In this document: piece by piece, positions 920-38,510 of the stretch | Layout of the letters: every line of letters begins with the position of its first letter | Numbering within the stretch: the first letter of the stretch is position 1 | DNA from: Myxococcales bacterium | GTDB lineage: Bacteria; Myxococcota_A; Polyangia; Nannocystales; Nannocystaceae | Direction: 5' to 3' | NCBI GenBank assembly: GCA_014240065.1 | Contig: JAAZXR010000001.1 | Span: 104,514-148,510 of the forward strand | Length of the DNA: 43,997 nucleotides | The notes under the pieces: generated by a model | Databases searched by the model: none | Told to the model about the DNA's origin: nothing | What the model saw: the letters and a program-made list of their open reading frames with translations, nothing else | Position numbers and translations under genes: made by a program

Positions 920-1365
920 GGGCGCCGCTCCCTGCGTCGAGGAGATCTAGGGGAGATCGTCGCGGCGCGAGGGCCGGAGGATCCCACTGTGAATCAAAAG
1001 TCGTTGGTCTGACATTAATTGCAGACGTGGCTGCAGATGTAGCCAAACGGACCGTGGGAAAAGCGCGGTCACCGCCGTCGACGCCCGCTCAGGTCGGCCT
1101 GGAGCAATTCGCGTCGCGGCGACGGATTCGGCGACCAGGGGCGTCGTGTGGGGGAATGGGAGCGCCGCGCCGCTCGGTTGAAACACTTTCGCGTTTGGAT
1201 CGTAGAGCAAGACAGAGGAACCGCGGAGTTGGTGTCGGGCTTGCATTAGTCACGACGCATGGGCGCGACACTTGCCAATCGCAATCGCCAACTTAGGTTG
1301 AGACGGGAATAACAACCCGGCTTGGTTGGTTGATCAGGTTCAGCGCGCACCTTCAAGGCAACATC
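920..1365. other. Intergenic region before the sigma factor gene
   Basis: About 445 bases lie between the methyltransferase stop and the preferred sigma-factor ATG. ORFs here on both strands have no recognisable protein motif and look like chance frames. I see no tRNA and no strong terminator hairpin. One weak promoter candidate lies at 1272-1299. The region could hold a small RNA, but nothing in it supports one directly. Confidence 0.5.
1272..1299 (+). promoter_or_regulatory. Possible sigma70-type promoter for the sigma factor gene
   Basis: TTGCCA (1272-1277) and TAGGTT (1294-1299) are separated by 16 bases, the same spacing as the lon and dnaK promoter candidates in this window. The -10 box is a weak match. 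It lies 66 bases upstream of the preferred ATG. Confidence 0.3.
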
Positions 1366-2649
1366 ATGACACGGACGAAAACAACACGAGGGACCCCACC
1401 TAGCATCTCCCGCAGCTCGAGAAAGAGCGCGTGGACGGCGTCAGGTCGGAAGTCTGGTGACGATAATTTCCTTGCGACCTACTTTAAGGAGATGTCGATC
1501 GTTGACGTCATGACTCCCGAACAGGAGCACGACGCGGCCGTTCGTATTCATGAACTCAGGGTGATGCAGTGGGGCGCGATTCTCTCATACCCACCTTATA
1601 TTATTGGGATTTGTGAACGCATCCGCGAGACCTATCCGGACGAAGAGGATGTCTCACACGAGGTCCTCGCGGAGGTTCGAATCCGCAGCAGAGCCTATCG
1701 GGATCGCGAGACACGAGACCATCGGGACGCGTACGGCGCCGCGTCCGCTGCGCTCAGCGCGGTCATGGCGACGGTCGATGTCGACGGTCTGGTCTCGGAT
1801 GTCGTCGACGACGATCTCGTCGCTCTCGGAAACGGTACCCGCGACGGGGTCCGGCTTGCGGTTCACCCCGCGCGCCGCGGGAGCCGTCCATTCGCCGACT
1901 ACGCGAAGGCGGTGCGGACGGCTTCGATGTTGCTGCGGCGAGAGAAAAACCACTTTGTGCGCGCCAACCTCCGGTTGGTCGTATCGATCGCGCGGCGCTT
2001 TAACCATGGAAAGCTCCCGCTCCAGGATCTGATCCAGGAGGGAAATATCGGTCTCATGAAGGCTGTGGATCGCTTTGATCACACCCGTGGGTTCAGGTTC
2101 TCGACCTACGGGAGCTGGTGGATTCGGCATGCCATTTCGAGGGCCATCGCGGACAAGGGGCGCGCGGTCCGCTTACCGGTTCACATGCTGGATGCGTACC
2201 AGAAGGTGGCGAAGGCGCGCCGCGAGTTTGAGCGTCAGCACGGCCGTCGGCCCGAGCAAGAAGAGCTCGTGGAAACCACGGGGATCCCGATGTCGAAGCT
2301 GGACCGCATGAACGGGTATGCGCTCGAGAACCCGGTGTCGTTGGACCGGCCCGTCTCCGGCGAGGATGATCGTAAGATGGTCGACCTGCTCGAGGACACC
2401 GATTCACAGCAGATCGGCGAGGCGTTGGAGCTGGAGTCATTCCACCGGCAGGTCCAGCAGATCGTTGGAGAGCTTCGTCCCATCGAAGCGGAGATCCTCA
2501 TGAAACGCTTCGGCTTGCATGGGTCGTCGGAGCTCACGCTCAAAGAGATCGGTGGGCACTACTCGCTGTCGCGCGAGCGCATTCGCCAGCTGCAAGAGCA
2601 GGCGCTCGGCAAGATCCGCCGCGAGCTCAAGCGCCGTGACGCGCTCTAG
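1366..2649 (+). CDS. RNA polymerase sigma factor, RpoD-like (sigma-70 group 1/2)
   Basis: Predicted 427-aa sigma factor directing core RNA polymerase to promoters. Region 1.2 is at about residues 34-62 (NFLATYFKEM..LTPEQE-like). A non-conserved insert follows to about 185. Region 2 (about 188-270) contains NLRLVVSIARRF, LIQEGNIGLMKAVDRF and the -10-binding FSTYGSWWIRHAI. Region 3 (about 275-340) contains ARREFERQHGRRP. Region 4.2 (about 388-420) contains the helix-turn-helix LTLKEIGGHYSLSRERIRQL. I chose the ATG at 1366, preceded by AAGG, over the in-frame TTG at 1330, which would add 12 residues with no homology. Region 1.1 is absent and the body is shorter than housekeeping RpoD, so an alternative (group 2 or heat-shock-like) sigma factor is more likely than the primary one. 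It converges on the FHA gene at 2668. Confidence 0.9.
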   Translation: MTRTKTTRGTPPSISRSSRKSAWTASGRKSGDDNFLATYFKEMSIVDVMTPEQEHDAAVRIHELRVMQWGAILSYPPYIIGICERIRETYPDEEDVSHEVLAEVRIRSRAYRDRETRDHRDAYGAASAALSAVMATVDVDGLVSDVVDDDLVALGNGTRDGVRLAVHPARRGSRPFADYAKAVRTASMLLRREKNHFVRANLRLVVSIARRFNHGKLPLQDLIQEGNIGLMKAVDRFDHTRGFRFSTYGSWWIRHAISRAIADKGRAVRLPVHMLDAYQKVAKARREFERQHGRRPEQEELVETTGIPMSKLDRMNGYALENPVSLDRPVSGEDDRKMVDLLEDTDSQQIGEALELESFHRQVQQIVGELRPIEAEILMKRFGLHGSSELTLKEIGGHYSLSRERIRQLQEQALGKIRRELKRRDAL

Positions 2650-2667: not shown

Positions 2668-3954
2668 CTACGCGGGGTCGATGCGGAACAGGTGCTGCCC
2701 GAGCAGGATCAGGCTCCCATACGGCAGCAGCTCACCCTCTCGCGCCTTGAAGTAGGTGCCGTTGGAGCTGTCGAGGTCTTCGAGATATACGCCCGTGTCG
2801 TCACCGATGATCCGGCAGTGAGCCCCTGAGACATAGCCGTCTGTGGGGAAGAGAATCTCTCCCTGCTCACGTCCCATGCTGATGCCGGTGTCGAATATCG
2901 GCCAGGCTCGCACGCCGAGATCGGGTTCCACGAGGAGCGTGACGCGACCCCAGAATCCAGTGTTCGGGCTGCCCATGATCTCAGAGCCGTCGGCCATGGA
3001 CTGTGGCTCTGGGAGGTCGTTGTAGAGCATCAGCTCTTGGCCAATACGAAAGTAGTCGCCGTCCGCCAGTTCGCGGCTCCCATACAATCGTACGAACACG
3101 CCGTTAACCGCCGCGTCGCGAGTGAGCACCAGCCCCTCTTCGTTCGCATGCAGTTGAATATGATCGGGATCGAGGTAGGGATCGGAGGCGAAGATGCCCC
3201 CCAAGGACCGACCGACGGCCGTGCCGCTCATGACGACGTCGAGCACTTCGTGCTCGGTCCCGTCTTCGCTCAACTGGATGAGCTTCCCCGTGTGTGTCAC
3301 TTGTGGAGGCGCGGGCACGGGCGGCGCGCTGTCCATGAACATGGTCCTCGCGCTGCCTGAGCTCGGCGGCGCGGCCGGAGGGGGAGCCATCGGGGTCGGC
3401 GGTGCGGCGGCGGGAGGGGCGGCCATCGGCGGGGGCGCCGCGACGGCGCTCGCGCTCGCGGCGGCGACGGGTTGAGAGTCCTCTTTAAGCGAGGACCCGC
3501 AGCGACCACAAAAAGCGAAGCCGGCTGGATTCTCGGTGGCGCAGGCGTTGCACACGGTGGGGAGGCTCGCCGGTGCGGAGCCGCTCACCCCGTTGGTGGG
3601 GAGGCTCGGGAGGCCTGGTGCACCTGGCGAGGCCTGCGGCGTCGCGCGCGTAGGCATCGTTGGGATCGGAATCGGAGGGAGCCCCCCCGCGCCGAGCCCG
3701 GGGCTAGGAGCGCCGCTCCCGGGGGGTGAAGCGCCGATGGATGGGCTCCAAGCGGGGGCCGCGGGGGCCGTGGGGGCGGGGGCCGGGACAACAGCCGGAG
3801 CCGGAGCCACCGCCACCGCAGGGGGAGCCATGGAGGGTGGGGGCGCCACGGGGCCAGGGGGAGGCGCCGCCGCCGCGCTAATCTTCGCCCCACATCCAAG
3901 GCAAAACTTGTAGTGGTCCTGGTTCTGTTTTCCGCAAGATGGGCAGTTCGTCAC
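2668..3954 (-). CDS. Double zinc-ribbon, double FHA-domain protein (paralogue A)
   Basis: Predicted 428 aa. The start is a GTG at 3954 preceded by GAGG at good spacing. This places the first zinc ribbon (Cys 4, 7, 18, 21) at the N-terminus; the longer upstream frame overlaps the neighbouring gene. A Pro/Ala-rich linker leads to a second ribbon (Cys 135, 138, 149, 152), another Pro/Ala linker, an ARTMF motif (202-206) and two FHA folds. FHA-1 (about 224-313) keeps GR at 248 but has Asp where the phosphothreonine-binding Ser usually sits (DPDH, 262-265). FHA-2 (about 336-426) has GRE, SGAH and SSNGT (361, 376, 396) and looks functional. FHA domains bind phosphothreonine peptides, so a link to Ser/Thr kinase signalling is likely. 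The gene lies 16 bases downstream of its paralogue. Specific function unknown. Confidence 0.9.
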   Translation of the reverse strand: MTNCPSCGKQNQDHYKFCLGCGAKISAAAAPPPGPVAPPPSMAPPAVAVAPAPAVVPAPAPTAPAAPAWSPSIGASPPGSGAPSPGLGAGGLPPIPIPTMPTRATPQASPGAPGLPSLPTNGVSGSAPASLPTVCNACATENPAGFAFCGRCGSSLKEDSQPVAAASASAVAAPPPMAAPPAAAPPTPMAPPPAAPPSSGSARTMFMDSAPPVPAPPQVTHTGKLIQLSEDGTEHEVLDVVMSGTAVGRSLGGIFASDPYLDPDHIQLHANEEGLVLTRDAAVNGVFVRLYGSRELADGDYFRIGQELMLYNDLPEPQSMADGSEIMGSPNTGFWGRVTLLVEPDLGVRAWPIFDTGISMGREQGEILFPTDGYVSGAHCRIIGDDTGVYLEDLDSSNGTYFKAREGELLPYGSLILLGQHLFRIDPA

Positions 3955-3970
3955 AATGAACCTCGGGGGG

Positions 3971-4873
3971 TTAGGAGATTTCGACCCTGAAGAGTTGTTG
4001 GCCGATGAAGACGTAGTCTCCGTTGTGGAGTTCGTGGGCGCCGCGGACCCGGTGAAATGTTCCGTTTCGGGAGCCGAGGTCTTCGAGCGTGACGCCCGAG
4101 GCGCCATTCGAGCGGAGCTGCGCGTGGCGGCCAGAGATGAAGTTGTCGTCGGGGAAGTCGAGGATATTCCCCTCTCTGCCAATGGAGAGCAGGGAGTCCT
4201 CTGCGCAGGCCATGATGCCTTCGCTCCCGCCCGCGAGGAGCTGCGTCACTCGAAATTTTGAGGTGACCCGCGGGCTCCCATAAAAGTAGGTCCCGGTGGA
4301 CGTCGGCGTTTGCGTGGGGACCTCCGTGAGATCTAGGCGGAGCAGCTGTTCGCCCGCGAGGAAGCAATCGCCGTCTTCGAGCGTCGCCGAGTCTTGGATG
4401 CGGAGAAACACTCCGTTCGCGCTCCCTGCGTCCTGCACAAACAGGCGGCCCGCCTGCACGGTGAACCGCGCGTGCTGTGGGCTCAAGAAGATGTCTTGGT
4501 CGAACTGAATATCCCCCTCGGTTCGGCCGAGCACCTGGGTGGAGCCCTTGAGGTGGTAGGTGACGCCGTCCGTGCCCTCTCCTTTAATGAGCACCAATCG
4601 AGGCGCCACGTCTTCTTGCTGAAGGGCGCCGAAGAACATGGTGCGCGCCGGCTTCACCTCTTCAGCGGGGCCTGCGGCCGCCGCCTCGGGGCCGACGGCG
4701 GTGTAGGCGCTGGTCGGCTCGTTCCCCCCAGGGCCCGTCGGTGGGTTCGAAAACGAAGGCGGGCCCGCCTCTCGCGGAATGGAGGGGGCGAGTGTGCTGC
4801 CACAACGGTTGCACGATTGTGTGCGCAGCGTGTTGAGTTGCCCACAGGTAGAGCACGCGAGGCCGAGTTCCAT
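3971..4873 (-). CDS. Zinc-ribbon, double FHA-domain protein (paralogue B)
   Basis: Predicted 300 aa from ATG 4873. The longer frame up to 5053 overlaps the upstream TPR gene and lacks homology. One N-terminal zinc ribbon (Cys 7, 10, 21, 24) is followed by a low-complexity linker and an ARTMFFG motif (77-82). FHA-1 (about 91-181) has GR at 116, SPQH at 131 and SANGV at 151. FHA-2 (about 206-298) has GRE at 232, SGRH at 247 and SRNGT at 268, so both keep binding-type residues. The domain order matches paralogue A apart from the missing second ribbon, pointing to a local duplication. Thr in ARTMF could be a kinase target read by the protein's own FHA domain, as in the OdhI/GarA family; that is inference. 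It is likely co-transcribed with its neighbours, which lie 35 and 16 bases away. Confidence 0.9.
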   Translation of the reverse strand: MELGLACSTCGQLNTLRTQSCNRCGSTLAPSIPREAGPPSFSNPPTGPGGNEPTSAYTAVGPEAAAAGPAEEVKPARTMFFGALQQEDVAPRLVLIKGEGTDGVTYHLKGSTQVLGRTEGDIQFDQDIFLSPQHARFTVQAGRLFVQDAGSANGVFLRIQDSATLEDGDCFLAGEQLLRLDLTEVPTQTPTSTGTYFYGSPRVTSKFRVTQLLAGGSEGIMACAEDSLLSIGREGNILDFPDDNFISGRHAQLRSNGASGVTLEDLGSRNGTFHRVRGAHELHNGDYVFIGQQLFRVEIS

Positions 4874-4908
4874 GAGGCGTCCATGGTCTAATGCGGCGTC
4901 TTCTCTTG

Positions 4909-7900
4909 TCAACGAAGGGCTGAGGCATTCGTCTGTTCGGGTGCCGGTTGACGTTCGTTGCCCCCTAGGAGGCAATTGAGCGGCGCCTGTCCAGCGCGGC
5001 CCCCCGAGGACCCACCATGCAGCGGGCTGCGCATCGCGCAGCGCTGGTTCCAATGCGCCAGCGCGAGGCGCTCAAAACGTGGACCGCGCTCCATCTCGAG
5101 CACGGCTTGCGCGAGATGCTCATGGGCAGACGCCGAGGCCTCGGCGCTCCACGCGGCGGCCACGGGGGCCGCGTGCAGGAGGTCCCGGGACCAACGAGAG
5201 ATGGAGGCGGGCATGCGGTCCACTGACGCGCGACCGACCTTCGCAGGGATCGAAGGCGACGGCGCGGCCGCGTAAAATTGGGTGACCGCGGCCCGAGCAG
5301 CGCGGCGAATCTGTCCCGAGGAGGAGAGGTAGGTCCTCCATAGGGCCGCTCCAATCGCGGCGTTGTCCTCGGGGTGCGGAGTGCGACCGAGTCGCCACAC
5401 GACGACCTCGGCGAGCCCCTCGTCGTCGCTCCATAGCAGCGGCAAGAGCCGTCGCACTTGGCTGTCCTGCGTGTACACGGCGTTGGCAATTTCACAGGCG
5501 GTGATGGCGGTCGCGGTGCGGGAGAGCGTCCGCGCGCGCTCGATCCGAGGGCGCAGCCGCCACGCGCGCGGCCCGCGGGCGGCGAGCCCCGCGCGAGCGA
5601 GCCCCGCGCAGACCAAGGCGCGCTTGAGGTCAGAGACATTTTTCTCATCGAGGAGGAGCCCGAGCAGCGCGAGCGCGTCTGGGTGGTCGCTGTTGATGAG
5701 CGCCCACGTCGCGCCGATTTTTACTGTGGCGTCGCGACTCGTGGTCGCCGCCTCGAAGAGCGCGTCGAGGGTGTCGGCGTCGTCGATGGTCCCCGCGGCG
5801 AGGAGCGCGCCCCAGCGCAGCCGGTCGAGGCCTCGTCGCTCCGTGCGAGACACCGAGCGTGGCGTGGCGATTCGCGTGGCGACGCGGACCAGCTCGCCGC
5901 CGGTGTGTCGCGCGTGCAGCCTCCCCAGCATCCGGGCCGCGCTCGCACGCGCGGTCAACGGATCCCCGCGGAACGCTCGCAAGAGCTCCCGCTCGATCAC
6001 GGGAGCCCACTCGAGGTGCTCTCGCTTCCAGGCGCGAAGCTCGACGTCGCTCATCAACTCGACGGTCTGAGCAATGAGGCCGCGTGAGACCAGCGACGAG
6101 TTCGCGGATGATTCCCGGGCGAGGAGCGATAAAAACTCAGCCTCCTGACCGGTGAGCGACATCAGGGACAAGGCCATCGAACCCGCTCGCTTGGAGAGGT
6201 AGTCGTCGCCGCGCCTCGAGAGCGCCGCGGTCAGACAGTCGGCGGCCGCCGGGAGGTCGCCACCGGTCATCTCGAGCATGCCCAGCTCGAACATCGGGGC
6301 GGGGTGCTCGGGGAAGGCCTTGGCGGCGGCTCGCAGCGCGTCCCGGGCGCTCTCGAGGTCTCCACGCTGCCGGAGCTCCGCCGCGATCCGAATCGAAGGC
6401 CCTGGGGCGCGAGTCGCGGTCGCGGCCTCACCCGCGCGCTCGATCGCCGCGACCGCCTCCCCGCGCTCCACGTGGAGCTCTGCGAGCAAGAGCAGCGGGG
6501 TCGCGAGGTCGCCGCCTCCCCGGCTGGCGAGGTCGCTCAGGACGCGGATGGCGTCCGCGGGGCGGTTCGCGCGACGCAGCGCGCGTCCATAGCTGAGCAA
6601 CACCTCGTGTGACTGCGGCGCGAGCTCCACCAGCCGACCCCACACGCTCACCACGTCCTCAGGTCGACCTTGGCGAAGATAGATCTCTGCGAGCGCGCGG
6701 GCGGACTCGATCCGGGTAGGGAGCGCCCCATGCTTCAAGTTCTCGAGCGAGTCGGTCTCAAGCTGCCGAAGGAGGGCCTCGCGTCGCTGCCGCTTCGGGA
6801 GGCGAAAGATATTCTCCACGATACGGCTCCGGGCTTCGTCGCGGAGCGCGGTGTCGGCGTCGGCGAAGACGAGCACCCGCGACCAGGCGTCGTAGGCGGC
6901 GGAGGAATCGCGGCGGTGCTCGGCGAGCAGCCCTGCGATTCGGTGGAGGCCGGGATCCGCTGGGGCGAGGGCGAGCCCTCGCTCCAGCGCTCGAGTCGCG
7001 TGCTCGCGCATCTCCCGTGGCTTGCCGTGCCCTGACTGGCTCAAAAAAATCTCGGCGACGTCGCGCCATCCCTCGTGGCGAGGCCGAGTGAGCGTGGCGA
7101 TCTCATTCCAGGTCTTCACCGCGTCGTCGAGGCGGTCCATTTGAAAGTACTGGTCGCCGAGCCGCCTGCGAGCGACCGCGTCCTTCGGCGACAGCGCACA
7201 TATCCGCTCGGACAACTCGAGCCCGCGCTCAAGGTCGCCGTGCGCGTTGAAGTAGTCCCTGACGATGCCGAGTCCGTCCGGTCGGCGACCCGCCAGCTCG
7301 CGAACCCGCTCGACGGCCCGACCGGCGGTTCGCGCGTCTCCGAGGGCGCGCGTCCGGGTGGCGAATTCGAGGGCATAGATGACGAGGTCTTCGTCGTATC
7401 GGCGCCACCCGGCGATGAGTTCGAGCACAGCGTGTGCGTCGCCCGCCCGCTCGAGCGCGTCCATCCAGCCGAGCAGCAGCGGCGCTCGGCGCGGGAACTC
7501 GCGAGCGCCTCGCTCCCAGTGCGGTGCCGACGGCTCCCCGAGCGCGGCCGCGACCTTCGCCCGCAGCCAGTACGCGCGCCAGTTGGCGTGGAGCTGCCGG
7601 CGTCCGACGGCCGCATCCAGCGTCGCGCCGAGGGGGCGGAGCGCGTCTGCGGCGCGCGCGTAGCGGAGCAGGTTCGCCCAGTCGTCGGCGTCGAACGCCT
7701 GGACCGCGCGCCGGTCATGGAGCAGCGAGAGCATCTGTGTGAGCGCGTCGTGGGGCGCGTTCGCCGAGGCCAGCGCGCGGGCGTGGTCCTTGATCCACTC
7801 CACGCGCTGCATGGCTCGCGGCGCGTGTTCGACGGCCTTCGCGTAGGAGCTGGCCGCCGCCACAAAATCAGCGTGGGCCTCTTCGCTCGTGGCGCGCGAG

Positions 7901-8547
7901 GCCCACGCGGTCGCGGAGTCAGGGAACTCCGACGTCCAGGTAGCGCCGACTTCGCGACGGATCCGCGTGAGCCCGTGGCGCGTCGCGAGCTTGAACGCCC
8001 GCTCCAGATACCGGCGGCGGGTGTCTTCGCCCATGCCGTGGGTCCGGGTGAGGAGGACACGCGCGGCGCGTGCGTGATGGGAGAGGGATTCGAGCGTGTC
8101 GCTCTGGAGGAGCAGCGCCTTGGCCGCGAAGCGGCTGCGGCCGAGGGCGACCGCCGAGAGCAGGTCCGCGGCGGCGGCGGGCTCCCCGGCGTCGAGTTTC
8201 ACGCGGGCGCTGAGGATGCGCAGCGCGGCGTCGTCGGGCGCCCGCGCGCGCCGCCGCTCGACGAGTCGGGCGCGGCCTCGGTCCCCGAGCGCCCTTTGGA
8301 GCGAACGCCAGTGGGGGTTCGAGAACGGGTTGCTGCGAAGCGCGTCGAGCCGGTGCTCGTTGAGCGCGCGGTCGTCGTCCCCCCGCTCAAGGCTCCAATC
8401 GTCCGTCGGCGGGGCGGCGCGCGCCGGGAGAGGAGGCCACAGCAGCAGCGCGGCGCCGAGGGCGATCGCGGGCCCCGCCGCGCGAGCGAGGACGCTCCGC
8501 GCGCAGCATATGCCGATCCAGCGTGTCCGACGATGGCGTCCCCCCAC
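4909..8547 (-). CDS. Large secreted TPR/HEAT-repeat protein
   Basis: Predicted 1212 aa from a GTG at 8547 with TAGGA upstream. An arginine-containing N-terminus and a long hydrophobic Ala/Leu segment ending PARAAPP (about residues 20-46) form a signal peptide, so the protein is probably periplasmic or outer-membrane associated. Most of the remainder is a helical solenoid. It has repeated TPR-like helices with A-A-A-L-E-x-A-P spacing from about 90 to 850 (for example LSPKDAVARRRLGDQYFQMD and APQSHEVLLSYGRALRRANR). Beyond about 890 the repeats are HEAT-like (TVKIGATWALINSDHPDALA). No enzyme motif is visible. It is first in a likely operon with the two FHA proteins and is divergent from the FmdB-type gene. 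It probably acts as a scaffold or assembly protein; the exact role is unknown. Confidence 0.85.
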   Translation of the reverse strand: MGGRHRRTRWIGICCARSVLARAAGPAIALGAALLLWPPLPARAAPPTDDWSLERGDDDRALNEHRLDALRSNPFSNPHWRSLQRALGDRGRARLVERRRARAPDDAALRILSARVKLDAGEPAAAADLLSAVALGRSRFAAKALLLQSDTLESLSHHARAARVLLTRTHGMGEDTRRRYLERAFKLATRHGLTRIRREVGATWTSEFPDSATAWASRATSEEAHADFVAAASSYAKAVEHAPRAMQRVEWIKDHARALASANAPHDALTQMLSLLHDRRAVQAFDADDWANLLRYARAADALRPLGATLDAAVGRRQLHANWRAYWLRAKVAAALGEPSAPHWERGAREFPRRAPLLLGWMDALERAGDAHAVLELIAGWRRYDEDLVIYALEFATRTRALGDARTAGRAVERVRELAGRRPDGLGIVRDYFNAHGDLERGLELSERICALSPKDAVARRRLGDQYFQMDRLDDAVKTWNEIATLTRPRHEGWRDVAEIFLSQSGHGKPREMREHATRALERGLALAPADPGLHRIAGLLAEHRRDSSAAYDAWSRVLVFADADTALRDEARSRIVENIFRLPKRQRREALLRQLETDSLENLKHGALPTRIESARALAEIYLRQGRPEDVVSVWGRLVELAPQSHEVLLSYGRALRRANRPADAIRVLSDLASRGGGDLATPLLLLAELHVERGEAVAAIERAGEAATATRAPGPSIRIAAELRQRGDLESARDALRAAAKAFPEHPAPMFELGMLEMTGGDLPAAADCLTAALSRRGDDYLSKRAGSMALSLMSLTGQEAEFLSLLARESSANSSLVSRGLIAQTVELMSDVELRAWKREHLEWAPVIERELLRAFRGDPLTARASAARMLGRLHARHTGGELVRVATRIATPRSVSRTERRGLDRLRWGALLAAGTIDDADTLDALFEAATTSRDATVKIGATWALINSDHPDALALLGLLLDEKNVSDLKRALVCAGLARAGLAARGPRAWRLRPRIERARTLSRTATAITACEIANAVYTQDSQVRRLLPLLWSDDEGLAEVVVWRLGRTPHPEDNAAIGAALWRTYLSSSGQIRRAARAAVTQFYAAAPSPSIPAKVGRASVDRMPASISRWSRDLLHAAPVAAAWSAEASASAHEHLAQAVLEMERGPRFERLALAHWNQRCAMRSPLHGGSSGGRAGQAPLNCLLGGNERQPAPEQTNASALR

Positions 8548-9045: not shown

Positions 9046-9906
9046 GTGACCGGCACCACCATCATCGACGGCAGAGCGATCGCCCGCGAGGTTGAGGCTG
9101 ACCTCGCGACCAAGACCAGCGCGCTCCTTGAGCGAGCGGTGCGCCCATGCCTCGCGGTCGTCCTGGTCGGCGAAGACCCGGCGTCGCGCGTGTACGTACG
9201 TCACAAGACGAGGGCGGCCGAGCGCATCGGCGTAGAGGCGAGAGACCATGCGCTGTCGGGCGACGTCTCCACCGAGCGCGTGCTCCAAGAGGTGCGCGCG
9301 CTCAACGACGACCCGGCGGTGAACGGCATCCTCGTACAGCTCCCGCTGCCGCCGCAGGTGGACGAGAATCGAGTGCTGCTGGCCATCGCCCCCCACAAGG
9401 ACGTCGACGGATTTCACCCCGACAACCTCGGCCGCCTCGTGATCGGCGAGCCGCGCTTCGTGGCGTGTACGCCGAGAGGGTGCATGCACCTGATCCGCTC
9501 GGTGTGTCCGGAAATCAGCGGGAAGCGTGCGCTCGTGGTCGGCCGATCCACCATCGTCGGAAAGCCCATGGCCCTGCTCCTCACCCAGGCCGACGCCACC
9601 GTGATCGTGGCGCACTCCAAGACCCAGGACTTGGCGGCAGAAGTAGGTCGCGCAGACATCGTGGTGGCCGCTGTGGGGCGGCCGAAGATGATCCGCGGGG
9701 AGTGGCTGCGGGCGGGCGCCGTCGTCATCGACGTGGGGATCAATCGCGGAGACGACGGCAAGCTCATCGGCGACGTGGATTTCGATGCGGCGCTCGGTCG
9801 CGCCGGCGCCATCACCCCCGTGCCCGGTGGCGTCGGGCCCATGACCATCGCCTGCTTGATGTCCAACGTGGTCGAAGCGGCCCACCGACGCCTCGACAGG
9901 GGCTAG
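9046..9906 (+). CDS. folD: Bifunctional methylenetetrahydrofolate dehydrogenase/cyclohydrolase
   Basis: Predicted 286 aa, normal for FolD. It oxidises 5,10-methylene-THF to 5,10-methenyl-THF with NADP and hydrolyses it to 10-formyl-THF, the one-carbon donor for purines and formyl-Met. The catalytic Tyr50/Lys54 pair is in YVRHK. The family signatures VNGILVQLPLP, KDVDGFHP and GRSTIVGKPMALLL (Rossmann glycine loop) and the C-terminal TPVPGGVGPMT are all present. The start is a GTG at 9046 with no clear ribosome binding site. The 10-formyl-THF product feeds PurH, encoded about 12 kb downstream. It converges on parB, whose stop is 27 bases away. Cytoplasmic. Confidence 0.97.
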   Translation: MTGTTIIDGRAIAREVEADLATKTSALLERAVRPCLAVVLVGEDPASRVYVRHKTRAAERIGVEARDHALSGDVSTERVLQEVRALNDDPAVNGILVQLPLPPQVDENRVLLAIAPHKDVDGFHPDNLGRLVIGEPRFVACTPRGCMHLIRSVCPEISGKRALVVGRSTIVGKPMALLLTQADATVIVAHSKTQDLAAEVGRADIVVAAVGRPKMIRGEWLRAGAVVIDVGINRGDDGKLIGDVDFDAALGRAGAITPVPGGVGPMTIACLMSNVVEAAHRRLDRG

Positions 9907-9933
9907 CGGCGCGCCGCTCCAGCACCCTGTCGC

Positions 9934-10869
9934 CTAGCCCTCCGGACCTTCGATGATCCGGTTCAGCAAGCGCGTGAGTTCGTCGAGTTCACCGTAGGGG
10001 AGCTCGATCACGCCGCGATTTTTGGAGCGCTTGGACACCCGCAGCTTGGCCCGGATACCGAGCGCGCGGGTGAGTCGTTCCTCAAGATCCTTGACGATGA
10101 TCGCGCTGCGCTTGGCCTCGTCACTCGGCGGAGGCGCGCTCGGCCGCAGCAGGTCACGCACCTTCGTCTCCGTCGCGCGCACGCTGAGCTTGCCCGCGAT
10201 CACGGATTTCGCGAGCGCGATCATCTGGGCCTCTTGTTGCAGGGACAGCAGCGCGCGCGCGTGACCCATGCCGAGCAGACCTCGGACGACCAGCTCGCGG
10301 ACCGGGGGCGGGAGCCGGAGCAGCCGCAGCGCGTTGGCGACCGAGCTTCGGTCCTTGCCCACCCGCCCGGCGAGCTCTTCTTGGGTCCAGTGGTTGAGGT
10401 CGATCAGCTGCTGATATGCGGTCGCCTCTTCGATGGCGTTGAGGTCGGCGCGTTGCAGGTTCTCGACCAGCGCGAGCTCGAGGCGTTGGTGGGCCGGCGT
10501 GTCTCGCACGACCACTGGCACCTCGTGAAGACCGGCGCGCTGAGCCGCGCGCCAGCGCCGTTCGCCCGCCAGGATCAGGTAGCGATCGGCGCCTTCTTTG
10601 TGCACCACGATTGGCTGGATGATGCCCGTGGTCGCGATGCTCTGCGCGAGCCCCTTGAGCGCCTCGTCGTCGAAGTGTCGCCGTGGCTGCTCCGGGTTTG
10701 GCTCGAGCTTCTCGATCGCCAGGTGTTGAGGGGTCGGCAGCGCCTTCCCGGCGCTCGCCGGGGTCGCGGCGGCGTCCGTGGAGTCGTCCTCTTGCGCCGT
10801 GGGCTTCGGCGCCGCGGTGGGGATGAGGGCGTTGAGGCCGCGGCCCAGCGCTGGACGTTTCGAGGTCAA
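9934..10869 (-). CDS. parB: Chromosome-partitioning protein ParB
   Basis: Predicted 311 aa. ParB binds parS sites, uses CTP to slide along DNA, and acts with ParA in origin segregation. The N-terminus has the ALGRGLNALI ParA-stimulating motif (about 7-16). An Ala/Pro linker follows, then the ParB/Srx CTP-binding domain with PNPEQPRRHF (about 58-66), AGERRWRAAQ (101-110) and ENLQRADLNAIEEA (136-149). The helix-turn-helix is TQEELAGRVGKDRSSVANAL (about 162-181). LGMGHARALL and a C-terminal dimerisation region complete the normal architecture. The start overlaps the parA stop (ATGA-type overlap, 10866-10869), indicating translational coupling. Confidence 0.97.
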   Translation of the reverse strand: MTSKRPALGRGLNALIPTAAPKPTAQEDDSTDAAATPASAGKALPTPQHLAIEKLEPNPEQPRRHFDDEALKGLAQSIATTGIIQPIVVHKEGADRYLILAGERRWRAAQRAGLHEVPVVVRDTPAHQRLELALVENLQRADLNAIEEATAYQQLIDLNHWTQEELAGRVGKDRSSVANALRLLRLPPPVRELVVRGLLGMGHARALLSLQQEAQMIALAKSVIAGKLSVRATETKVRDLLRPSAPPPSDEAKRSAIIVKDLEERLTRALGIRAKLRVSKRSKNRGVIELPYGELDELTRLLNRIIEGPEG

Positions 10870-11666
10870 AGGGTGGACTCCTGTTTGAGCGATTCGAGCA
10901 GCTCTCGCGCGAGCGCGAGGTAGGCTTGCGCGCCCTTGCTGTCGATATCGTACAAGATCGCGGGGAGTCCGTGGCTCGGACTCTCGCTGAGTCGAATATT
11001 TTGGGGAATCCGGGTCTTGAACACGAGCCCCTTAAAGTGCTCCTCGACTTCGCTGACGACCTGCTGGGCGAGGTTGGTCCGCGGGTCAAACAGGCAAAAC
11101 AAGATCCCCTGAATGTGCAGGTCTGGATTGAGCGCCTCTTTGACCCGCGCGATGGTCTCGCGGAGGGCCGACAGGCCTTCGAGCGAGAAGTACTTGGCTT
11201 GCATGGGGATGAGGACGCTGTCGGCCGCGACGAGGGCGTTGAGCGTCAAGAGCCCCAGGGAAGGGGGGCAGTCGAAGATCACGAAGTCGTAGCGGGCGGA
11301 GGCCTGATCGAGCGCGGCGCGAAGGAGCGTCGCTCGATCTTCAAGCTGCACCAGCTCGACCTCTGCGCCGGCGAGATCGGCCGTCGCAGGCACGACGTGC
11401 AGGTTGTCGAGTTGGGTCTCTCGAATCACCGCGTCCAGCGAGGCCTGGCCGACGAGGAGGTCGTAGGTCCCGGCGTCTACGGCGCCGCGCGGGAACCCTA
11501 CGCTCGAGCTGGCGTTGCACTGGGGATCGAGATCCATGAGCAGCACGCGCCGCTCGGCGGCCGCGAGGCTCGCCGCCAGATTGACCGCCGTGGTCGTTTT
11601 GCCCTCGCCTCCTTTTTGATTGGAGACGGCCAACACGAGCGGGCTTTGAGCGTTGCGGTCGGGCAC
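10866..11666 (-). CDS. parA: Chromosome-partitioning ATPase ParA (Soj-type)
   Basis: Predicted 266 aa. This is the ATPase that binds DNA non-specifically and moves ParB-parS complexes. The deviant Walker A loop reads KGGEGKTTT (18-26), with Glu where most family members have Val; both signature lysines are present. LLMDLDPQCNAS is the A' motif and FVIFDCPPSLG the Walker B region. IPMQAKYFSLEGL and the C-terminal RIPQNIRLSESPSHGLP are also family-typical. The start is a GTG at 11666. An in-frame TAA 24 bases upstream excludes a longer product, and no convincing ribosome binding site is seen. It is followed directly by parB. Confidence 0.97.
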   Translation of the reverse strand: MPDRNAQSPLVLAVSNQKGGEGKTTTAVNLAASLAAAERRVLLMDLDPQCNASSSVGFPRGAVDAGTYDLLVGQASLDAVIRETQLDNLHVVPATADLAGAEVELVQLEDRATLLRAALDQASARYDFVIFDCPPSLGLLTLNALVAADSVLIPMQAKYFSLEGLSALRETIARVKEALNPDLHIQGILFCLFDPRTNLAQQVVSEVEEHFKGLVFKTRIPQNIRLSESPSHGLPAILYDIDSKGAQAYLALARELLESLKQESTL

Positions 11667-12521: not shown

Positions 12522-14930
12522 ATGACCACTCCGACGCCGTCCGAAGAAAATATCGAACTCCCCGATGTGATCGCCTTGTTGCCCCTGCGCAACCAGGTTT
12601 TGTTTCCGGGCTCGATCATCCCCATCGACGTCGGACGGCCGAGCTCCGTCAAGCTGATCGAGGAGGCCATCGCCGCAGAGCGGCCGATCATCGGGATCGT
12701 GGCGCAAAAAGACGCCCAGGTGGAGAACCCGGAGCGGGGAGACATCTACGATGTCGGCTGTGGCGCGCGCATTCTCAAGGTCATCAAGCTCGCCAAAGAC
12801 AGCTACAGCGTGATTTTGCAGGGCGTGGTGCGCATGCATATCCAAGAACTGACGGCGACGGAGCCCTTTCTCGAGGCCCGCGTCAGCGAGGTCGGCGACA
12901 TCCTCGTGTCGACGGTGGAGTGCGACGCCCTCGTGGCCAATATTAAGGAGACCGCAAAGAAGCTGGTCTCGCTGCTCCCGGAATTGCCTCGGGAGGTGGC
13001 GTCCTTGCTCGACAGCGTGACGAAGCCGGGGGAGCTCGCGGACCTGGTGGTGTCGAATCTGGAGATCGAGCCGGCCGAGAAACAAGACCTGCTCGAGGCG
13101 GAGCGCATCGACGAGCGGCTCCAAAAAGTGCTGATGCTGCTCACGCGTCAACTTGAAGTGCTGAAGATCCGCGAGCGGATCAACACTCAAGTTCAAGAAG
13201 AGATGGGGCACAGCCAGCGCGAGTACGTGCTGCGTCAACAGCTGAAGGCGATTCGTGGAGAGCTCGGAGACGCGGACGACGAGAGCGAAGAGGCGGACGA
13301 ATTTCACCAGAAGATTCTCGACGCGAAGATGCCAGAGGACGCGGAGAAGGTCGCCCTCAAGCAGCTGGACCGGCTCAAGCAGATGCAGCCCTCCAGCGCC
13401 GAGTACACCGTCACGCGCTCGTATCTTGAGTGGATGGTGGACTTGCCTTGGGCGATCACGACGGAGGACCAGCTCGATATCCCCGTGGTCCGCGACGTGC
13501 TCAATGAGGACCACTACGACCTAGAGAAGGTCAAAAAGCGGATTTTGGAGTACATGGCGGTGCTCAAGCTGAACGCCTCGAAGAAGGGGCCGATCCTGTG
13601 CTTGGTGGGACCACCCGGGGTGGGGAAGACGTCTCTTGGAAAGTCGATCGCGAAGGCCATCGGGCGCAAGTTTGTCCGCATCAGTTTGGGCGGTGTGCGT
13701 GACGAGGCGGAGATTCGCGGTCACCGAAGGACCTACGTCGGATCGCTGCCCGGACGAATAATTCAGGGACTCAAGCGCGCGGGGACGAACAACCCAGTGA
13801 TCGTGCTCGATGAGATCGACAAGCTCGGCGCGGACTTTCGCGGCGATCCGGCCTCTGCGCTGCTCGAGGTGCTCGATCCAGAGCAAAACCACACCTTCAG
13901 CGATCATTATTTAGAGGTGCCTTTCGATCTGTCGAAGGTGATGTTCATCGCGACGGCGAACAGCGTGGAGCCGATCCCTCCGGCCCTCAAAGATCGCCTC
14001 GAGCTGCTCGAACTCCCGGGCTACACGCGCCAAGAAAAGCTCGCCATCGCGAATCGATTTTTGATCCCCAAACAAATCACGGAGCACGGGCTGTCCACCG
14101 AGGCCCGCGGAGAGGGGTTCAAGGTGCAATTTTCGGAGGAGGCGGTGTTCGCCATGATCGACAGCTACACGCGAGAGGCGGGGGTTCGCAACCTTGAGCG
14201 TGAAGCGTCGAGCGTGATCCGTGGCATCGCGGTGAAGGTCGTGGAGGGCGAGCTGTCGGGCGAGATCGAGGTGACCCGCGACCACGTCACCGACTTTCTT
14301 GGCCCCGAGAAGTTCATGCCTGAGGTGGCCGAGCGGACGGCCCAGCCGGGCGTCGCGACGGGTCTCGCGTGGACGCCTGCGGGCGGAGAGATCATGTTCG
14401 TGGAGGCCACCCGTATGCCGGGCAAGGGCGGTCTCATGCTGACGGGTCAGCTTGGGGACGTGATGAAAGAGTCCGCGCAGGCGGCGATGAGCTATCTCAA
14501 GAGTCATCTCGATACGCTGGGTATCGATCAGGAGAAGATCGAGAACCACGACATTCACGTGCACGTGCCGGCGGGGGCGATCCCCAAGGACGGACCGTCG
14601 GCGGGTGTGGCGATGCTCTCGGCCCTCGTGTCATTGCTGACGGACACCTGTGTACGGCACGACGTGGCCATGACGGGAGAGATCACGCTGCGGGGGCTCG
14701 TGCTGCCCATCGGTGGAGTCAAAGAGAAAATGCTGGCTGCGCACCGAGCGGGGATTAAGCGGGTGTTGCTGCCCGAGCGGAACGAGAAGGACGTGGTGGA
14801 CGTGCCCGAGGAGATTCGCGAGGAGATGGAGATCGTGTTCTGCAAGCAGGTTGGAGACGTCCTCGCCTCGGTGTTGACGGACAAGGACACGGACACGGAC
14901 ACGGACACGGACACGGGCACCGACGCCTAG
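12522..14930 (+). CDS. lon: ATP-dependent Lon protease
   Basis: Predicted 802 aa, full length for bacterial LonA. The N-terminal substrate-binding domain starts at [18 protein letters not shown] (about 12-30), followed by a charged coiled coil. The AAA+ module has Walker [10 protein letters not shown] (about 362-370) and Walker B VIVLDEID (about 426-433). The protease domain carries the Ser-Lys dyad: Ser693 in DGPSAGVAM and Lys736 in GGVKEKM, 43 residues apart as in E. coli Lon. It degrades misfolded and regulatory proteins in the cytoplasm. The very C-terminus is an unusual Asp-Thr repeat made by a hexanucleotide array. It stands as a single gene behind a TTGACA-type promoter. Confidence 0.98.
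14885..14920 (+). repeat. Hexanucleotide repeat in the lon 3' end
   Basis: Five perfect copies of GGACAC (14885-14914) plus one variant GGGCAC (14915-14920) encode (DT)5 then GT at the end of Lon. The units are a multiple of three, so slippage would change tail length without breaking the frame. The repeat lies outside the catalytic domains. Confidence 0.9.
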
Positions 14931-14938
14931 CGGCTGTT

Positions 14939-14960
14939 CCCGCCTCGCGAGGCGGGGTTT
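14939..14960 (+). terminator. Possible lon terminator
   Basis: CCCGCCTCG followed by CGAGGCGGG is an 18-base perfect palindrome (14939-14956) ending in GTTT. It begins eight bases after the lon stop. The T-run is short and the hairpin loop would use part of the stem, so it is a weak intrinsic terminator. Confidence 0.45.
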
Positions 14961-15130
14961 CGCCGCGGCTCGCCGTCTCCCGTGCGATCGTTCGGGGCTG
15001 GCGAAGCCGCGCACGAGCGGGGAAGGCCGCTGTACGAGCATTGGGGGGCTACCTCGCCGGACCTTGGCGCGGCTTCGTGGTGGTGCCGCGCATCGCGCGA
15101 AGTATGCGGAATCTCGCACCCGCGGGCCTG

Positions 15131-15158
15131 TTGACACTCGGCCCCCGACGCTTATGTT
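15131..15158 (+). promoter_or_regulatory. Predicted promoter of dnaK
   Basis: TTGACA (15131-15136) and TATGTT (15153-15158) are separated by 16 bases. CCTGTTGACA and a TCGGCCC spacer motif are shared with the lon promoter. It lies 66 bases before the dnaK ATG, which has AAAGG upstream. A classical sigma32 box (CTTGAAA, CCCCAT) is not seen. Confidence 0.6.
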
Positions 15159-15224
15159 GCCGTCCGCAGCCGAGCAATACGGACCAACGCTCCGGTCTCG
15201 GCGCCACGAAAGGTAACCAAAGCA

Positions 15225-17153
15225 ATGGGCAAGATCATCGGAATCGACTTGGGCACGACGAACTCTGTCGTCGCCGTCATGGAGGGCAACGAGCCCAAGG
15301 TCATCACCAACGAAGAGGGCGGACGCACGACGCCGTCGGTCGTCGCGTTCCAAGAGAGCGGCGACGTGCTCGTCGGGCAGCTGGCGCGGCGTCAAGCCAT
15401 CACGAACCCCGAGAACACCATCTTCTCGTCCAAGCGGCTCGTGGGTCGGCGCTTCGCAGAGGTCGAGAGTGAGATCGGCCGTCTCCCATACAAGGTCGTC
15501 AAGGCTGCCAACGGTGACGCGCACGTCGAGGCGCGAGGCAAGGTCTACCCTCCGCCCGAGATCAGCGCGCGGGTGCTGATGAAGTTGAAGAAGGCGGCAG
15601 AGGACTACCTCGGAGAGTCCGTGACGGAGGCCGTCATCACGGTCCCGGCTTATTTCAATGATTCTCAGCGTCAGGCCACGAAAGACGCGGGCCGCATCGC
15701 GGGGCTCGACGTGAAACGCATCGTGAACGAGCCGACGGCGGCGGCGCTGGCCTACGGTCGGTCCCGCGGCAGCGAAGAGGAGAAACTCATCGCGGTGTAC
15801 GATCTTGGTGGCGGCACCTTTGACATCTCGATCCTCGAGGTGGCGGAGAACGTCGTGGAGGTCATCGCGACCAACGGCGACACGCACCTCGGCGGTGATG
15901 ACTTTGACGAGATCATCATTCAATGGCTCATCTTAGAGTTCAAGAAGGAGTCGGGGATCGACGTCAGCAAAGACAACATGGTCATGCAGCGCCTCAAAGA
16001 CGCCGGCGAGAAGGCCAAAATTGAGCTTTCCAACCAGTCGGAGGTGGACATCAACCTCCCGTTCCTCACGGCGGACGCCAGCGGCCCGAAGCACCTGCAA
16101 ATCAAACTTAGCCGCGCGAAGTTTGAGTCGATGATCGGGGCGCTCGTCAAGCGATCCATCGAGCCGTGCAAGAAGGCCCTCTCGGACGCAAAGAAATCTG
16201 TCGGTGACATCGACGAGGTGTTGCTTGTCGGTGGCTCCACCCGCATTCCTTGTGTGCAGCAGGCGGTGCAGGACTTCTTTGGAAAGGAGCCAAGCAAGGG
16301 CGTGAACCCGGATGAGGTGGTGGGCCTCGGCGCGGCGGTGCAAGCCGGCGTGCTCGCGGGCGATGTCTCCGATATCGTGCTCGTTGACGTCACCCCGCTG
16401 AGCCTCGGAATCGAGACGCTCGGTGGTGTCATGACCGCCCTCATCCCGCGCAACACCACGATCCCGACACGCAAGTCGGAGGTGTTCACGACGGCGGCCG
16501 ACAACCAGTCCTCGGTGGAGGTCCACGTGGTCCAAGGCGAGCGCTCGATGGCAGGGGACAACCGCACGCTCGGTAAGTTCAGCCTCCAGGGGATCCCCGC
16601 GGCGCCCCGCGGCGTCCCTCAAATCGAGGTGACCTTCGACATCGACGCGAACGGCATCGTCAACGTCTCTGCCAAGGACCAGGCGACCGGCAAAGAGCAG
16701 AAGATCACGCTCACCGCCTCCTCCGGGCTCAACGAAGATGACATCCAACGCATGGTGGACGACGCGGCGCAGTTCGAGGAAGAGGACAAAAAGCGCAAGG
16801 AGGCCGTGGAGGCGAAGAACACGCTCGAGTCCATGGCGCTGCAGACGGAGAAGATGTTGTCTGAAAATGGCGACAAAATCGCCGACGCGGACAAGGCAGA
16901 GGTCGAGGCCGCGGTGGAAGAGGCGAAGGAAGCGGTGGAGTCCGGCGACGGCGACAAGATCGCGGCTGCCAAAGAGAAACTCGAAGCCGCGAGCCACAAG
17001 CTGGCCAGCGCCATGTACGGACAGAATGGCGCGGAGGGGGAAGCCCCTGGGGACGCGGACCCCTCGGCCGGGACGGGCGAATCGCCTGGCGCTGAAGATG
17101 CGGGCGGCGGCGAGGGCGACGTGATCGACGCGGAATTCGAAGAGAAGACCTAG
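15225..17153 (+). CDS. dnaK: Hsp70 chaperone DnaK
   Basis: Predicted 642 aa, full length. The ATPase domain begins [21 protein letters not shown] and contains [17 protein letters not shown], the [11 protein letters not shown] motif, [14 protein letters not shown] and LVGGSTRIP. The substrate-binding domain starts near [17 protein letters not shown]. The C-terminus ends DVIDAEFEE, close to the EEVD-like DnaK tail. It binds exposed hydrophobic segments in an ATP cycle with DnaJ and GrpE. Neither partner gene is adjacent; dnaK stands alone between its own promoter and a strong terminator. The C-terminal lid region contains a low-complexity Ala/Glu/Gly stretch. Confidence 0.99.
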
Positions 17154-18163: not shown

Positions 18164-18379
18164 CTGCGGCCGAGCACCGCGCGTTGTCTGGGGGTCGGGC
18201 TGACGCGGTTCGACGGGCCGTCCGGCCGTCCACCGCGGCGTAGCTCCTTGGAGGCTACCTGCGGCCGCGCCGCCCGCACCCGCCGCAGGACGAGCCATGG
18301 CCGCCAAACGGCGATCAGGGCGGTCGCTGGTCCTGCGCTTTGACACGGCGCCTGGGTATGCCGGACAAGGGATGGGTTG

Positions 18380-28734: not shown

Positions 28735-28804
28735 TGCGCGCGCGTCGGCTTTGAGACAAGTATGGCGCACCGGAGAACCGAAGACCCGGTTAGGTGAGAC
28801 ACCC

Positions 28805-30709
<1,905 letters not shown>

Positions 30710-37718: not shown

Positions 37719-37928
37719 ACGTACGGAAGGATACCGGAGCGGCGGCATCAAAAGCACGTTTCAAGCGCGGCGAGGGATGAATCGCCGCGTTCGATCGCGG
37801 AGGCGCGCCCTTCGGGAGAGATCGCGGGGGGGGATCGCTGCGGACCAGAACACGTCTCCTTTGGGTGATGTTGCTCGGTCCGGCGGTTTTCATTACGATG
37901 GTTGCGCCCGCGACACGCGGGGATCCTT

Positions 37929-38510
37929 ATGAACAAGCAAGTCCGAAAGTTCGAGTGCAGGGATGATGTGTGGGCCAGGGTGGAGGCGCTCGCGGAGAGT
38001 CGCGGGGTGTCCACGGACGAGATCGTTCAAGGGGTGCTCATTCAGGTGTTCTCGCGCAAGCGTGCCGCGGGCGCAAAGGCCGGTGGGGACAGCGCCCGGG
38101 TCCGATCGGTTTCTCCGCCCGCGAGCAGTCGCCGGACGATCCCCGCCCTGCGTGATCCGAGCGAGCCACCTCCGCTCGGAGGGTCCGCGCGCCGAGCACC
38201 GGCGAAGACCCCGCAGTCTGCGGAGCGGCTATACATCACCGTCGCGGGGGCAGTGCACGTCGTCGATCGCGACGAATTCCTGATAGGGCGGGCTCCGAGG
38301 GTGTGTCAAATCGCGATCAAAGACGCGAACATCTCGCGGAAGCACTGCCGTGTTGTCCGGCGCGACGGCCAGTTCTTTATCTGCGATCTTGGCAGCACGA
38401 ACGGGGTGGAATTTGAGGGCGAGCGCGTTGACAACCATCGGATCATGGAGGGGGCGGTGTATCGCTTGTGTGACCACGAGCTTCATTGCACCTACACCCG
38501 TCCGTCGTGA
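37929..38510 (+). CDS. FHA-domain protein with N-terminal ribbon-helix-helix-like segment
   Basis: Predicted 193 aa from ATG 37929, preceded by GGGGA; GTG 37902 is unsupported. The first 45 residues (VRKFECRDDVWARVEALAESRGVSTDEIVQ) read like a ribbon-helix-helix DNA-binding or dimerisation unit. After a Pro/Ser linker, an FHA domain (about 104-190) carries IGRAP, SRKHC and STNGVEF, so phosphothreonine binding should be intact. The stop overlaps the recG GTG (GTGA), giving tight translational coupling. A DNA-binding FHA protein next to RecG could link kinase signalling to recombination or repair; that is inference. Confidence 0.85.
   Translation: MNKQVRKFECRDDVWARVEALAESRGVSTDEIVQGVLIQVFSRKRAAGAKAGGDSARVRSVSPPASSRRTIPALRDPSEPPPLGGSARRAPAKTPQSAERLYITVAGAVHVVDRDEFLIGRAPRVCQIAIKDANISRKHCRVVRRDGQFFICDLGSTNGVEFEGERVDNHRIMEGAVYRLCDHELHCTYTRPS

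What the first reader, a model, noticed from the sequence alone, without database searches (positions are those of the whole stretch)
2668..8547. Tandem zinc-ribbon/double-FHA paralogues downstream of a giant secreted repeat protein
Two proteins with the same domain order sit 16 bases apart, downstream of a 1212-aa TPR/HEAT protein with a signal peptide. Both carry an ARTMF motif between the Pro/Ala linker and FHA-1. One of four FHA domains has lost the canonical phosphothreonine-binding Ser. This looks like duplication and divergence of a phospho-signalling adaptor, perhaps with the ARTMF threonine acting as an internal switch as in OdhI/GarA.
Basis: partly seen in the sequence, partly recalled or inferred. 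Interest (0 to 1): 0.5.

Follow-up and report, generated by a model that had tools for sequence, protein, structure and literature searches.

The report
Ancient paired zinc-ribbon double-FHA adaptor proteins
Two neighbouring genes in a myxobacterium encode related adaptor proteins, each with small zinc-binding modules and two phosphothreonine-reading domains; the pair is an old, widely kept feature of these bacteria rather than a recent duplication, and in some relatives a protein kinase gene sits beside them, which makes the predicted phosphorylation circuit testable.

Summary
Genes A (4873..3971, minus, 300 aa) and B (3954..2668, minus, 428 aa) lie 16 nt apart behind a probably exported TPR/HEAT protein (8547..4909). 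Here A has one zinc ribbon, B two. Each has an ARTMF motif and two FHA domains; only B FHA-1 lacks the canonical Ser (Asp). The window is a Nannocystaceae MAG (Myxococcota).

The duplication is ancient: in a tree the four FHA positions are four separate groups, and A with B downstream recurs in 81 of 120 distinct loci (21 had no room to tell).

In A the motif is a conserved island (Thr 78 of 88, second Phe 86 of 88). A second copy, GTYFYGSP, precedes FHA-2 (Thr 88 of 88). In B the first copy is kept in a minority. Thr loss and FHA-1 Ser loss never coincide, so the FHA-1/pThr switch is only weakly supported; FHA-2 is the invariant reader.

New: in 8 of 120 distinct A loci a Hanks kinase gene lies within 1.1 kb downstream of A. 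Best reading: pThr-reading scaffold pair tied to Hanks kinases, whose TxFF elements are either self-ligands or structural caps. Function is untested.

The parts
4909..8547 (-). Probably exported 1212-aa TPR/HEAT repeat protein, first gene of the unit (GTG 8547)
   Evidence: of 120 distinct A loci a homologue lies upstream of A on the same strand in 46, downstream on the other strand in 1, was not found in 46, and 27 had no room
3971..4873 (-). Gene A: zinc ribbon, TMFFGA motif (T78), FHA-1, GTYFYGSP linker motif (T195), FHA-2; 300 aa
2668..3954 (-). Gene B: two zinc ribbons, Pro/Ala linkers, ARTMFMD motif, FHA-1 with Asp for Ser (D262), DGSEIMGSPN linker, FHA-2; 428 aa (GTG 3954)
4628..4645 (-). 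Codons for A residues 77-82 (RTMFFG), first TxFF element
   Evidence: Thr 78 of 88, F81 86 of 88
4274..4294 (-). Codons for A residues 194-200 (GTYFYGS), second element of the same pattern, before FHA-2
   Evidence: T195 88 of 88
3331..3348 (-). Codons for B residues 203-208 (RTMFMD)
   Evidence: present in a minority of B homologues
3169..3171 (-). Codon of B D262, where FHA domains carry the phosphate-binding Ser
   Evidence: S 53, D 11, N 8 of 72

Best explanation
A and B are an ancient pair of cytosolic zinc-ribbon, tandem-FHA adaptor (scaffold) proteins. In each, FHA-2 is a fully canonical phosphothreonine reader. FHA-1 is under weaker constraint, and in the Nannocystaceae B it has probably lost canonical phosphate binding. 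A Hanks-type kinase, in some relatives a zinc-ribbon kinase encoded beside A, phosphorylates threonines on itself, on partners or on A and B, and the FHA-2 domains gather these proteins. Each FHA unit of A carries, 13-15 residues before its first strand, a T-x-[FY]-[FY]-[GSA] element. It acts either as a self-ligand once its Thr is phosphorylated (as in OdhI, GarA and DgcB) or as a structural cap of the FHA unit. The co-encoded, probably exported TPR/HEAT protein suggests an output at the cell envelope. Shown: anatomy, conservation, ancient duplication, kinase neighbourhood in some relatives. Inferred: pThr reading, cytosolic location, kinase partnership, envelope output.
For: FHA-2 residues R, S, H and N are invariant in 88 of 88 A and 72 of 72 B homologues. 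AF2 is confident over the zinc ribbons and both FHA domains of A and B, and the top solved folds for A include OdhI, GarA, EmbR and DgcB. A Hanks kinase lies within 1.1 kb downstream of A in 8 of 120 distinct A loci, from five family codes; six are within 20 nt of A, seven are on the opposite strand and one is on the same strand with a start about 10 nt after A. The profile used was built from three of these eight, which match by construction; those three score 227-330 bits with each other and at most 160 with other kinases in the loci compared. Of five read in full, three (L207, L201, L122) begin with a CxxC..CxxC pattern, though only L207 reaches Pfam's zinc-ribbon lists at E 0.001, below cut-off. 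The window's own genome holds an unlinked kinase with such a ribbon, 46% identical to L207's. T.[FY][FY][GSA] is at site 1 in 73, at site 2 in 65 and at both in 56 of 88 A homologues, never elsewhere in them; T to the FHA Gly is 38 and 37 residues. DgcB, OdhI and GarA self-peptides also have hydrophobic +2 and +3 residues (PMC6733907 section 9).
Against: There are no phosphorylation, binding or localisation data. The kinase is beside A in only 8 of 120 loci, in none of the Nannocystaceae loci examined, and mostly on the other strand, which is weak evidence for one pathway. Thr78 is missing in 10 of 88 A rows without Ser in its place, and the first motif is absent from most B. AF2 gives the first element only pLDDT 55-65 in A and about 53 in B, so no docking is predicted. 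In B the first element stands 44 residues before the FHA Gly, not 37-38. The ribbon of A scores under Pfam's cut-off.
Confidence: 0.6

Rival explanations
1. One reading: Thr of ARTMF is phosphorylated and bound by the adjacent FHA-1, which shuts or opens the adaptor as in OdhI and GarA.
For: Motif island in A, Thr 78 of 88 and F at +3 86 of 88; no Ser in the Thr column, which suits FHA selectivity for pThr. Top folds include self-binding FHA proteins. DgcB does this with its own tail.
Against: Loss of the FHA-1 Ser (6 rows) and of the Thr (10 rows) are disjoint among 88. The motif is missing in most B although B FHA-1 keeps Ser in 53 of 72. About 14 residues link Thr78 to the first FHA strand, which looks short for binding to the same domain (inference).
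Confidence: 0.25
2. The TxFF elements are structural: an N-terminal extension that packs on each FHA unit or joins the two into one body; Thr is kept for packing, not for phosphorylation.
For: Similar register before both FHA domains of A (38 and 37 residues before the Gly). [YF]FGxMQ stays in 8 of 10 rows that lost the Thr. The linker Thr is 88 of 88 in A and 66 of 72 in B, with G328 and P330 72 of 72. AF2 places short strands in B's linker with block pLDDT 80-88.
Against: The first element of A has low confidence in the model (55-65), and most B do without it.
Confidence: 0.4
3. A and B bind nucleic acid or another protein by their zinc ribbons, and the FHA domains only dimerise them; phosphorylation is not involved.
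For: Ribbon cysteines are kept in most rows (75-78% of 88 A for the first ribbon). FHA-1 shows relaxed Ser (19 of 72 B, 6 of 88 A).
Against: FHA-2 keeps its pThr-binding residues in every row, and kinases neighbour A in five family codes.
Confidence: 0.15

Closest known systems
OdhI / GarA (single-FHA self-binding regulators of Actinobacteria)
   Same: FHA fold (Z 15.0-15.8, 1.0-1.6 A over 93-98 residues); an upstream Thr followed by hydrophobic residues
   Different: A and B have two FHA domains, zinc ribbons and a short tether of about 14 residues; the NCBIfam OdhI model gives A 51.6 bits against a cut-off of 200 and does not list B
Bdellovibrio DgcB (FHA-GGDEF with a self-binding tail)
   Same: FHA fold (Z 15.6); tail Thr with hydrophobic +2 and +3
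   Different: No GGDEF domain in A or B; two FHA domains; zinc ribbons
Mycobacterial FhaB/FipA (NF049868)
   Same: Best NCBIfam match of A and of B, best stretch in FHA-2
   Different: 77.6 and 42.9 bits against a cut-off of 125; other architecture
Myxobacterial gliding protein GltG (NF033760)
   Same: FHA domain
   Different: 12.1 bits for A against a cut-off of 650; B not listed

Membership tests
FHA domain proteins with a pThr-binding site | Gly-Arg, Ser-x-x-His, Asn-Gly signature | tested here: met
   Met by FHA-2 in all 88 A and 72 B homologues and by A FHA-1 of the window; B FHA-1 of the window has Asp for Ser
FHA domain proteins with a pThr-binding site | Binding of a phosphothreonine peptide | not testable with these tools
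   needs purified protein
OdhI/GarA family | Score above the NCBIfam NF041660 cut-off | tested here: not met
   51.6 bits against 200 for A; B not listed
OdhI/GarA family | N-terminal phosphorylatable Thr that is a ligand of the own FHA domain | tested here: inconclusive
   Thr in 78 of 88 A, but no co-variation with the FHA-1 Ser and low model confidence
FhaB/FipA (NF049868) | Score above the NCBIfam cut-off | tested here: not met
   77.6 and 42.9 against 125
GltG (NF033760) | Score above the NCBIfam cut-off | tested here: not met
   12.1 against 650 for A; B not listed
Zinc-ribbon proteins (PF13240, PF12773) | Score above the Pfam cut-off | tested here: inconclusive
   B 38.7 and 37.6 against 25 and 27.3; A 11.9 and 15.4, under both, although two CxxC pairs are present

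The most novel reading that the evidence does not exclude
A phylum-old phospho-scaffold of Myxococcota in which each FHA unit of A carries its own TxFF phospho-ligand: a zinc-ribbon Hanks kinase phosphorylates the two tandem elements, and the pThr are passed between FHA-2 of A and FHA-2 of B to build an A-B network that answers to an exported TPR/HEAT protein, while FHA-1 has been demoted to a structural or dimerising domain.
Probability: 0.15. Interest if true: 0.75.

Novelty: new variant of a known kind. Interest (0 to 1): 0.4.

Why it matters
This 4.7 Mb genome has many Hanks kinases (67 matching stretches, some of them two to a gene), and readers of their signals in myxobacteria are, to my knowledge, little described. 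A paired reader kept over much of the phylum, with a kinase gene beside it in some families, gives named partners and residues to test. It may also be a tandem use of the self-peptide principle of OdhI, GarA and DgcB.

Tried and rejected
Recent tandem duplication: rejected by the FHA tree, in which A FHA-1, A FHA-2, B FHA-1 and B FHA-2 are four separate groups over 21 loci (support 34, 99, 99 and 90). The A FHA-1 group is thus weakly supported, and only 94 columns were available. I chose 22 of the 70 loci that hold both genes, and 21 were usable.

Motif as a general FHA tag: not so in this genome. The pattern T.[FYM][FYMLV][GSAD] stands before the FHA domain in 1 of 19 other FHA loci read (L163, TTTFFSS, possibly chance). 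A T[ML]FFG-like DNA pattern hits the genome twice, once in A, against three hits of the reversed control.

Motif in the giant or the kinases as a shared ligand: the pattern is in 2 of 29 giants and 0 of 5 kinases, taken as chance.

Kinase at 18377 as the partner: not excluded, but not favoured.

Literature: seven searches ran. No listed title or abstract start was about such a pair. Only PMC6733907 was opened (passages, section 9). PMC7159879, the one paper holding FHA domain, zinc ribbon and Myxococcus, was seen only in the listing. The library holds open-licence papers only, so this absence is weak.

Counts to read with care. The 88 A and 72 B rows come from loci gathered by similarity to A, deduplicated on the last 150 residues; two weaker relatives (L063 9636-10721 and L138 6553-7122) were dropped. 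B was gathered only near A., 120 distinct A loci: B without kinase 75, kinase and B 6, kinase without B 2 (L201; and L186, where the stretch ends inside the kinase), neither 16, no room 21. A kinase counted if over 120 bits with the three-row profile and within 1.2 kb; L044's frame is only 212 aa and may be a remnant, and L207's and L044's kinases lie 1018 and 563 nt from A. Of the 59 genomes (own included) all match A at E 0.001, but 7 only at E above 1e-30. The B motif count depends on the pattern (17 loose, some far upstream and probably chance; 12 strict). Absence of a family from the VIA-align list was not used.

Full report
What is there. The window lies in a 4.7 Mb MAG, 97.7% complete. 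The only same-genus genome searched (G001, contig C404, 5625 bases) corresponds by length and match to a contig titled 'uncultured Nannocystaceae bacterium' (L111, 90% identity), and named relatives with the gene include Enhygromyxa, Plesiocystis, Nannocystis and Paraliomyxa; so it is a Nannocystaceae member, phylum Myxococcota. On the minus strand, in order, are a probably exported 1212-aa TPR/HEAT protein (8547..4909), gene A (4873..3971, 300 aa) and gene B (3954..2668, 428 aa), with 16 nt between A and B. Pfam finds two FHA domains in each of A and B and TPR repeats in the first gene. Here A has one CxxC..CxxC ribbon and B two; several A of other families also have two.

The four FHA domains. 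All keep Gly-Arg, His and Asn-Gly. Among 88 distinct A and 72 distinct B homologues, FHA-2 keeps Ser in every row, A FHA-1 in 82 of 88 and B FHA-1 in 53 of 72, with 11 Asp and 8 Asn. On the B tree a starred clade of 20 rows holds the window; 19 of the 20 have Asp or Asn and one has Ser. Window B FHA-1 also has a long end branch, 1.08 changes per column. The loss is a property of this clade and goes with faster change.

Age. All 59 genomes match A at E 0.001, 52 of them at E 1e-30 or better; over the phylum 111 of 188 genomes match the A alignment at E 1e-30 or better. In a tree of 86 FHA domains from 21 loci and a third paralogue the four positions are four separate groups, one of them weakly supported. 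The internal FHA duplication and the A/B duplication are therefore older than the family. Of 120 distinct A loci, 81 have B within about 3.5 kb downstream on the same strand, 18 show none and 21 had no room. The TPR/HEAT gene is upstream of A on the same strand in 46 of 120, downstream on the other strand in 1, not found in 46, without room in 27.

The motif. In A the residues from K/R77 to Q85 form an island in a poorly conserved linker: T78 78 of 88, F81 86 of 88, Q85 96%. A second, similar element, GTYFYGSP, stands before FHA-2, T195 in 88 of 88. Both keep about the same distance to the Gly of Gly-Arg of their FHA domain, 38 and 37 residues. T.[FY][FY][GSA] is at site 1 in 73, at site 2 in 65, at both in 56 of 88 A proteins, and nowhere else in them; shuffled proteins give 0.02 each. 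In B the ARTMF form is kept in a minority (12 of 72 strict; 17 of 72 loose) and stands 44 residues before the Gly, while the linker element DGTExMGSPN, 37 residues before it, is kept (T 66 and S 4 of 72; G328 and P330 72 of 72).

Is the Thr a switch? For: no Ser stands in its column, hydrophobic residues stand at +2 and +3 as in the self-peptides of DgcB, OdhI and GarA (section 9 of PMC6733907), and these proteins are among the top solved folds. Against: 10 of 88 rows lack the Thr, which needs at least 4 changes of state on the tree; 8 of these rows keep [YF]FGxMQ; the rows that lost the Thr and the 6 that lost the FHA-1 Ser do not overlap; and AF2 gives the first element only 55-65 pLDDT. A structural role is at least as likely as a phospho-switch, and FHA-2 is a better candidate reader than FHA-1.

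The kinase link. In 8 of 120 distinct A loci a Hanks-type kinase gene lies within 1.1 kb downstream of A, six of them within 20 nt; in six of the eight B follows. They come from five family codes (f6, f14, f15, f19, f44), the last in another class. Seven are on the opposite strand; one (L122) is on the same strand and starts about 10 nt after A. The search profile was built from three of the eight (L201, L206, L207), which match by construction; these score 227-330 bits with each other and at most 160 with the other kinases compared, so I infer orthology. Pfam confirms a kinase domain in five of five scanned. L207, L201 and L122 start with a CxxC..CxxC pattern, L206 and L052 do not. L044's frame is short and may be a remnant. 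In the window's genome the nearest match to L207's kinase is at C202:56190-57149, 46% identical and with a CxxC..CxxC ribbon before the kinase domain. The kinase at 18377 is a Pkinase without these traits.

Verdict. This is an ancient pair of zinc-ribbon tandem-FHA adaptors, not described in what my searches listed, most likely pThr readers tied to Hanks kinases: a new variant of a known kind.

Noticed in passing
L063 9636-10721 (own genome, contig C153): A third, more diverged zinc-ribbon double-FHA paralogue; its linker reads EWFGTP without the Thr, and its FHA-1 has Gly-Ala in place of Gly-Arg.
   Followed up: partly
window 1330-2649: A sigma-70 factor (regions 2, 3, 4) convergent with B; its family recurs near the unit in 22 of 60 loci compared, and a methyltransferase family in 17.
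   Followed up: partly
window 9046-11666: FolD, ParB and ParA genes next to the unit; their families recur in 15, 7 and 11 of 60 loci compared.
   Followed up: partly
window 14631-15923, minus strand: An ORF matching PF10712 'NAD-GH' (212 bits) overlaps, on the other strand, an HSP70 gene at 15225-17153; most likely a shadow ORF of dnaK.
   Followed up: yes
window 28751-30709: A 652-aa protein with a zinc ribbon and a GYF domain, an arrangement I recall from the gliding protein GltJ/AgmX (recall, not tested).
   Followed up: no
window 37902-38510: Another FHA protein, 202 aa, in the same window.
   Followed up: no
L163 (own genome, contig C166): An FHA protein that also holds GTLFLDEIGE, recalled as a sigma-54 activator motif, has TTTFFSSP about 37 residues before its FHA match, like the A linker element; may be chance.
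   Followed up: no
L198, L199, L200, L204, L205: Loci of other Myxococcota classes with A and a TPR/HEAT homologue nearby but no B found, suggesting that the A-TPR/HEAT link may be older than the A-B tandem.
   Followed up: partly
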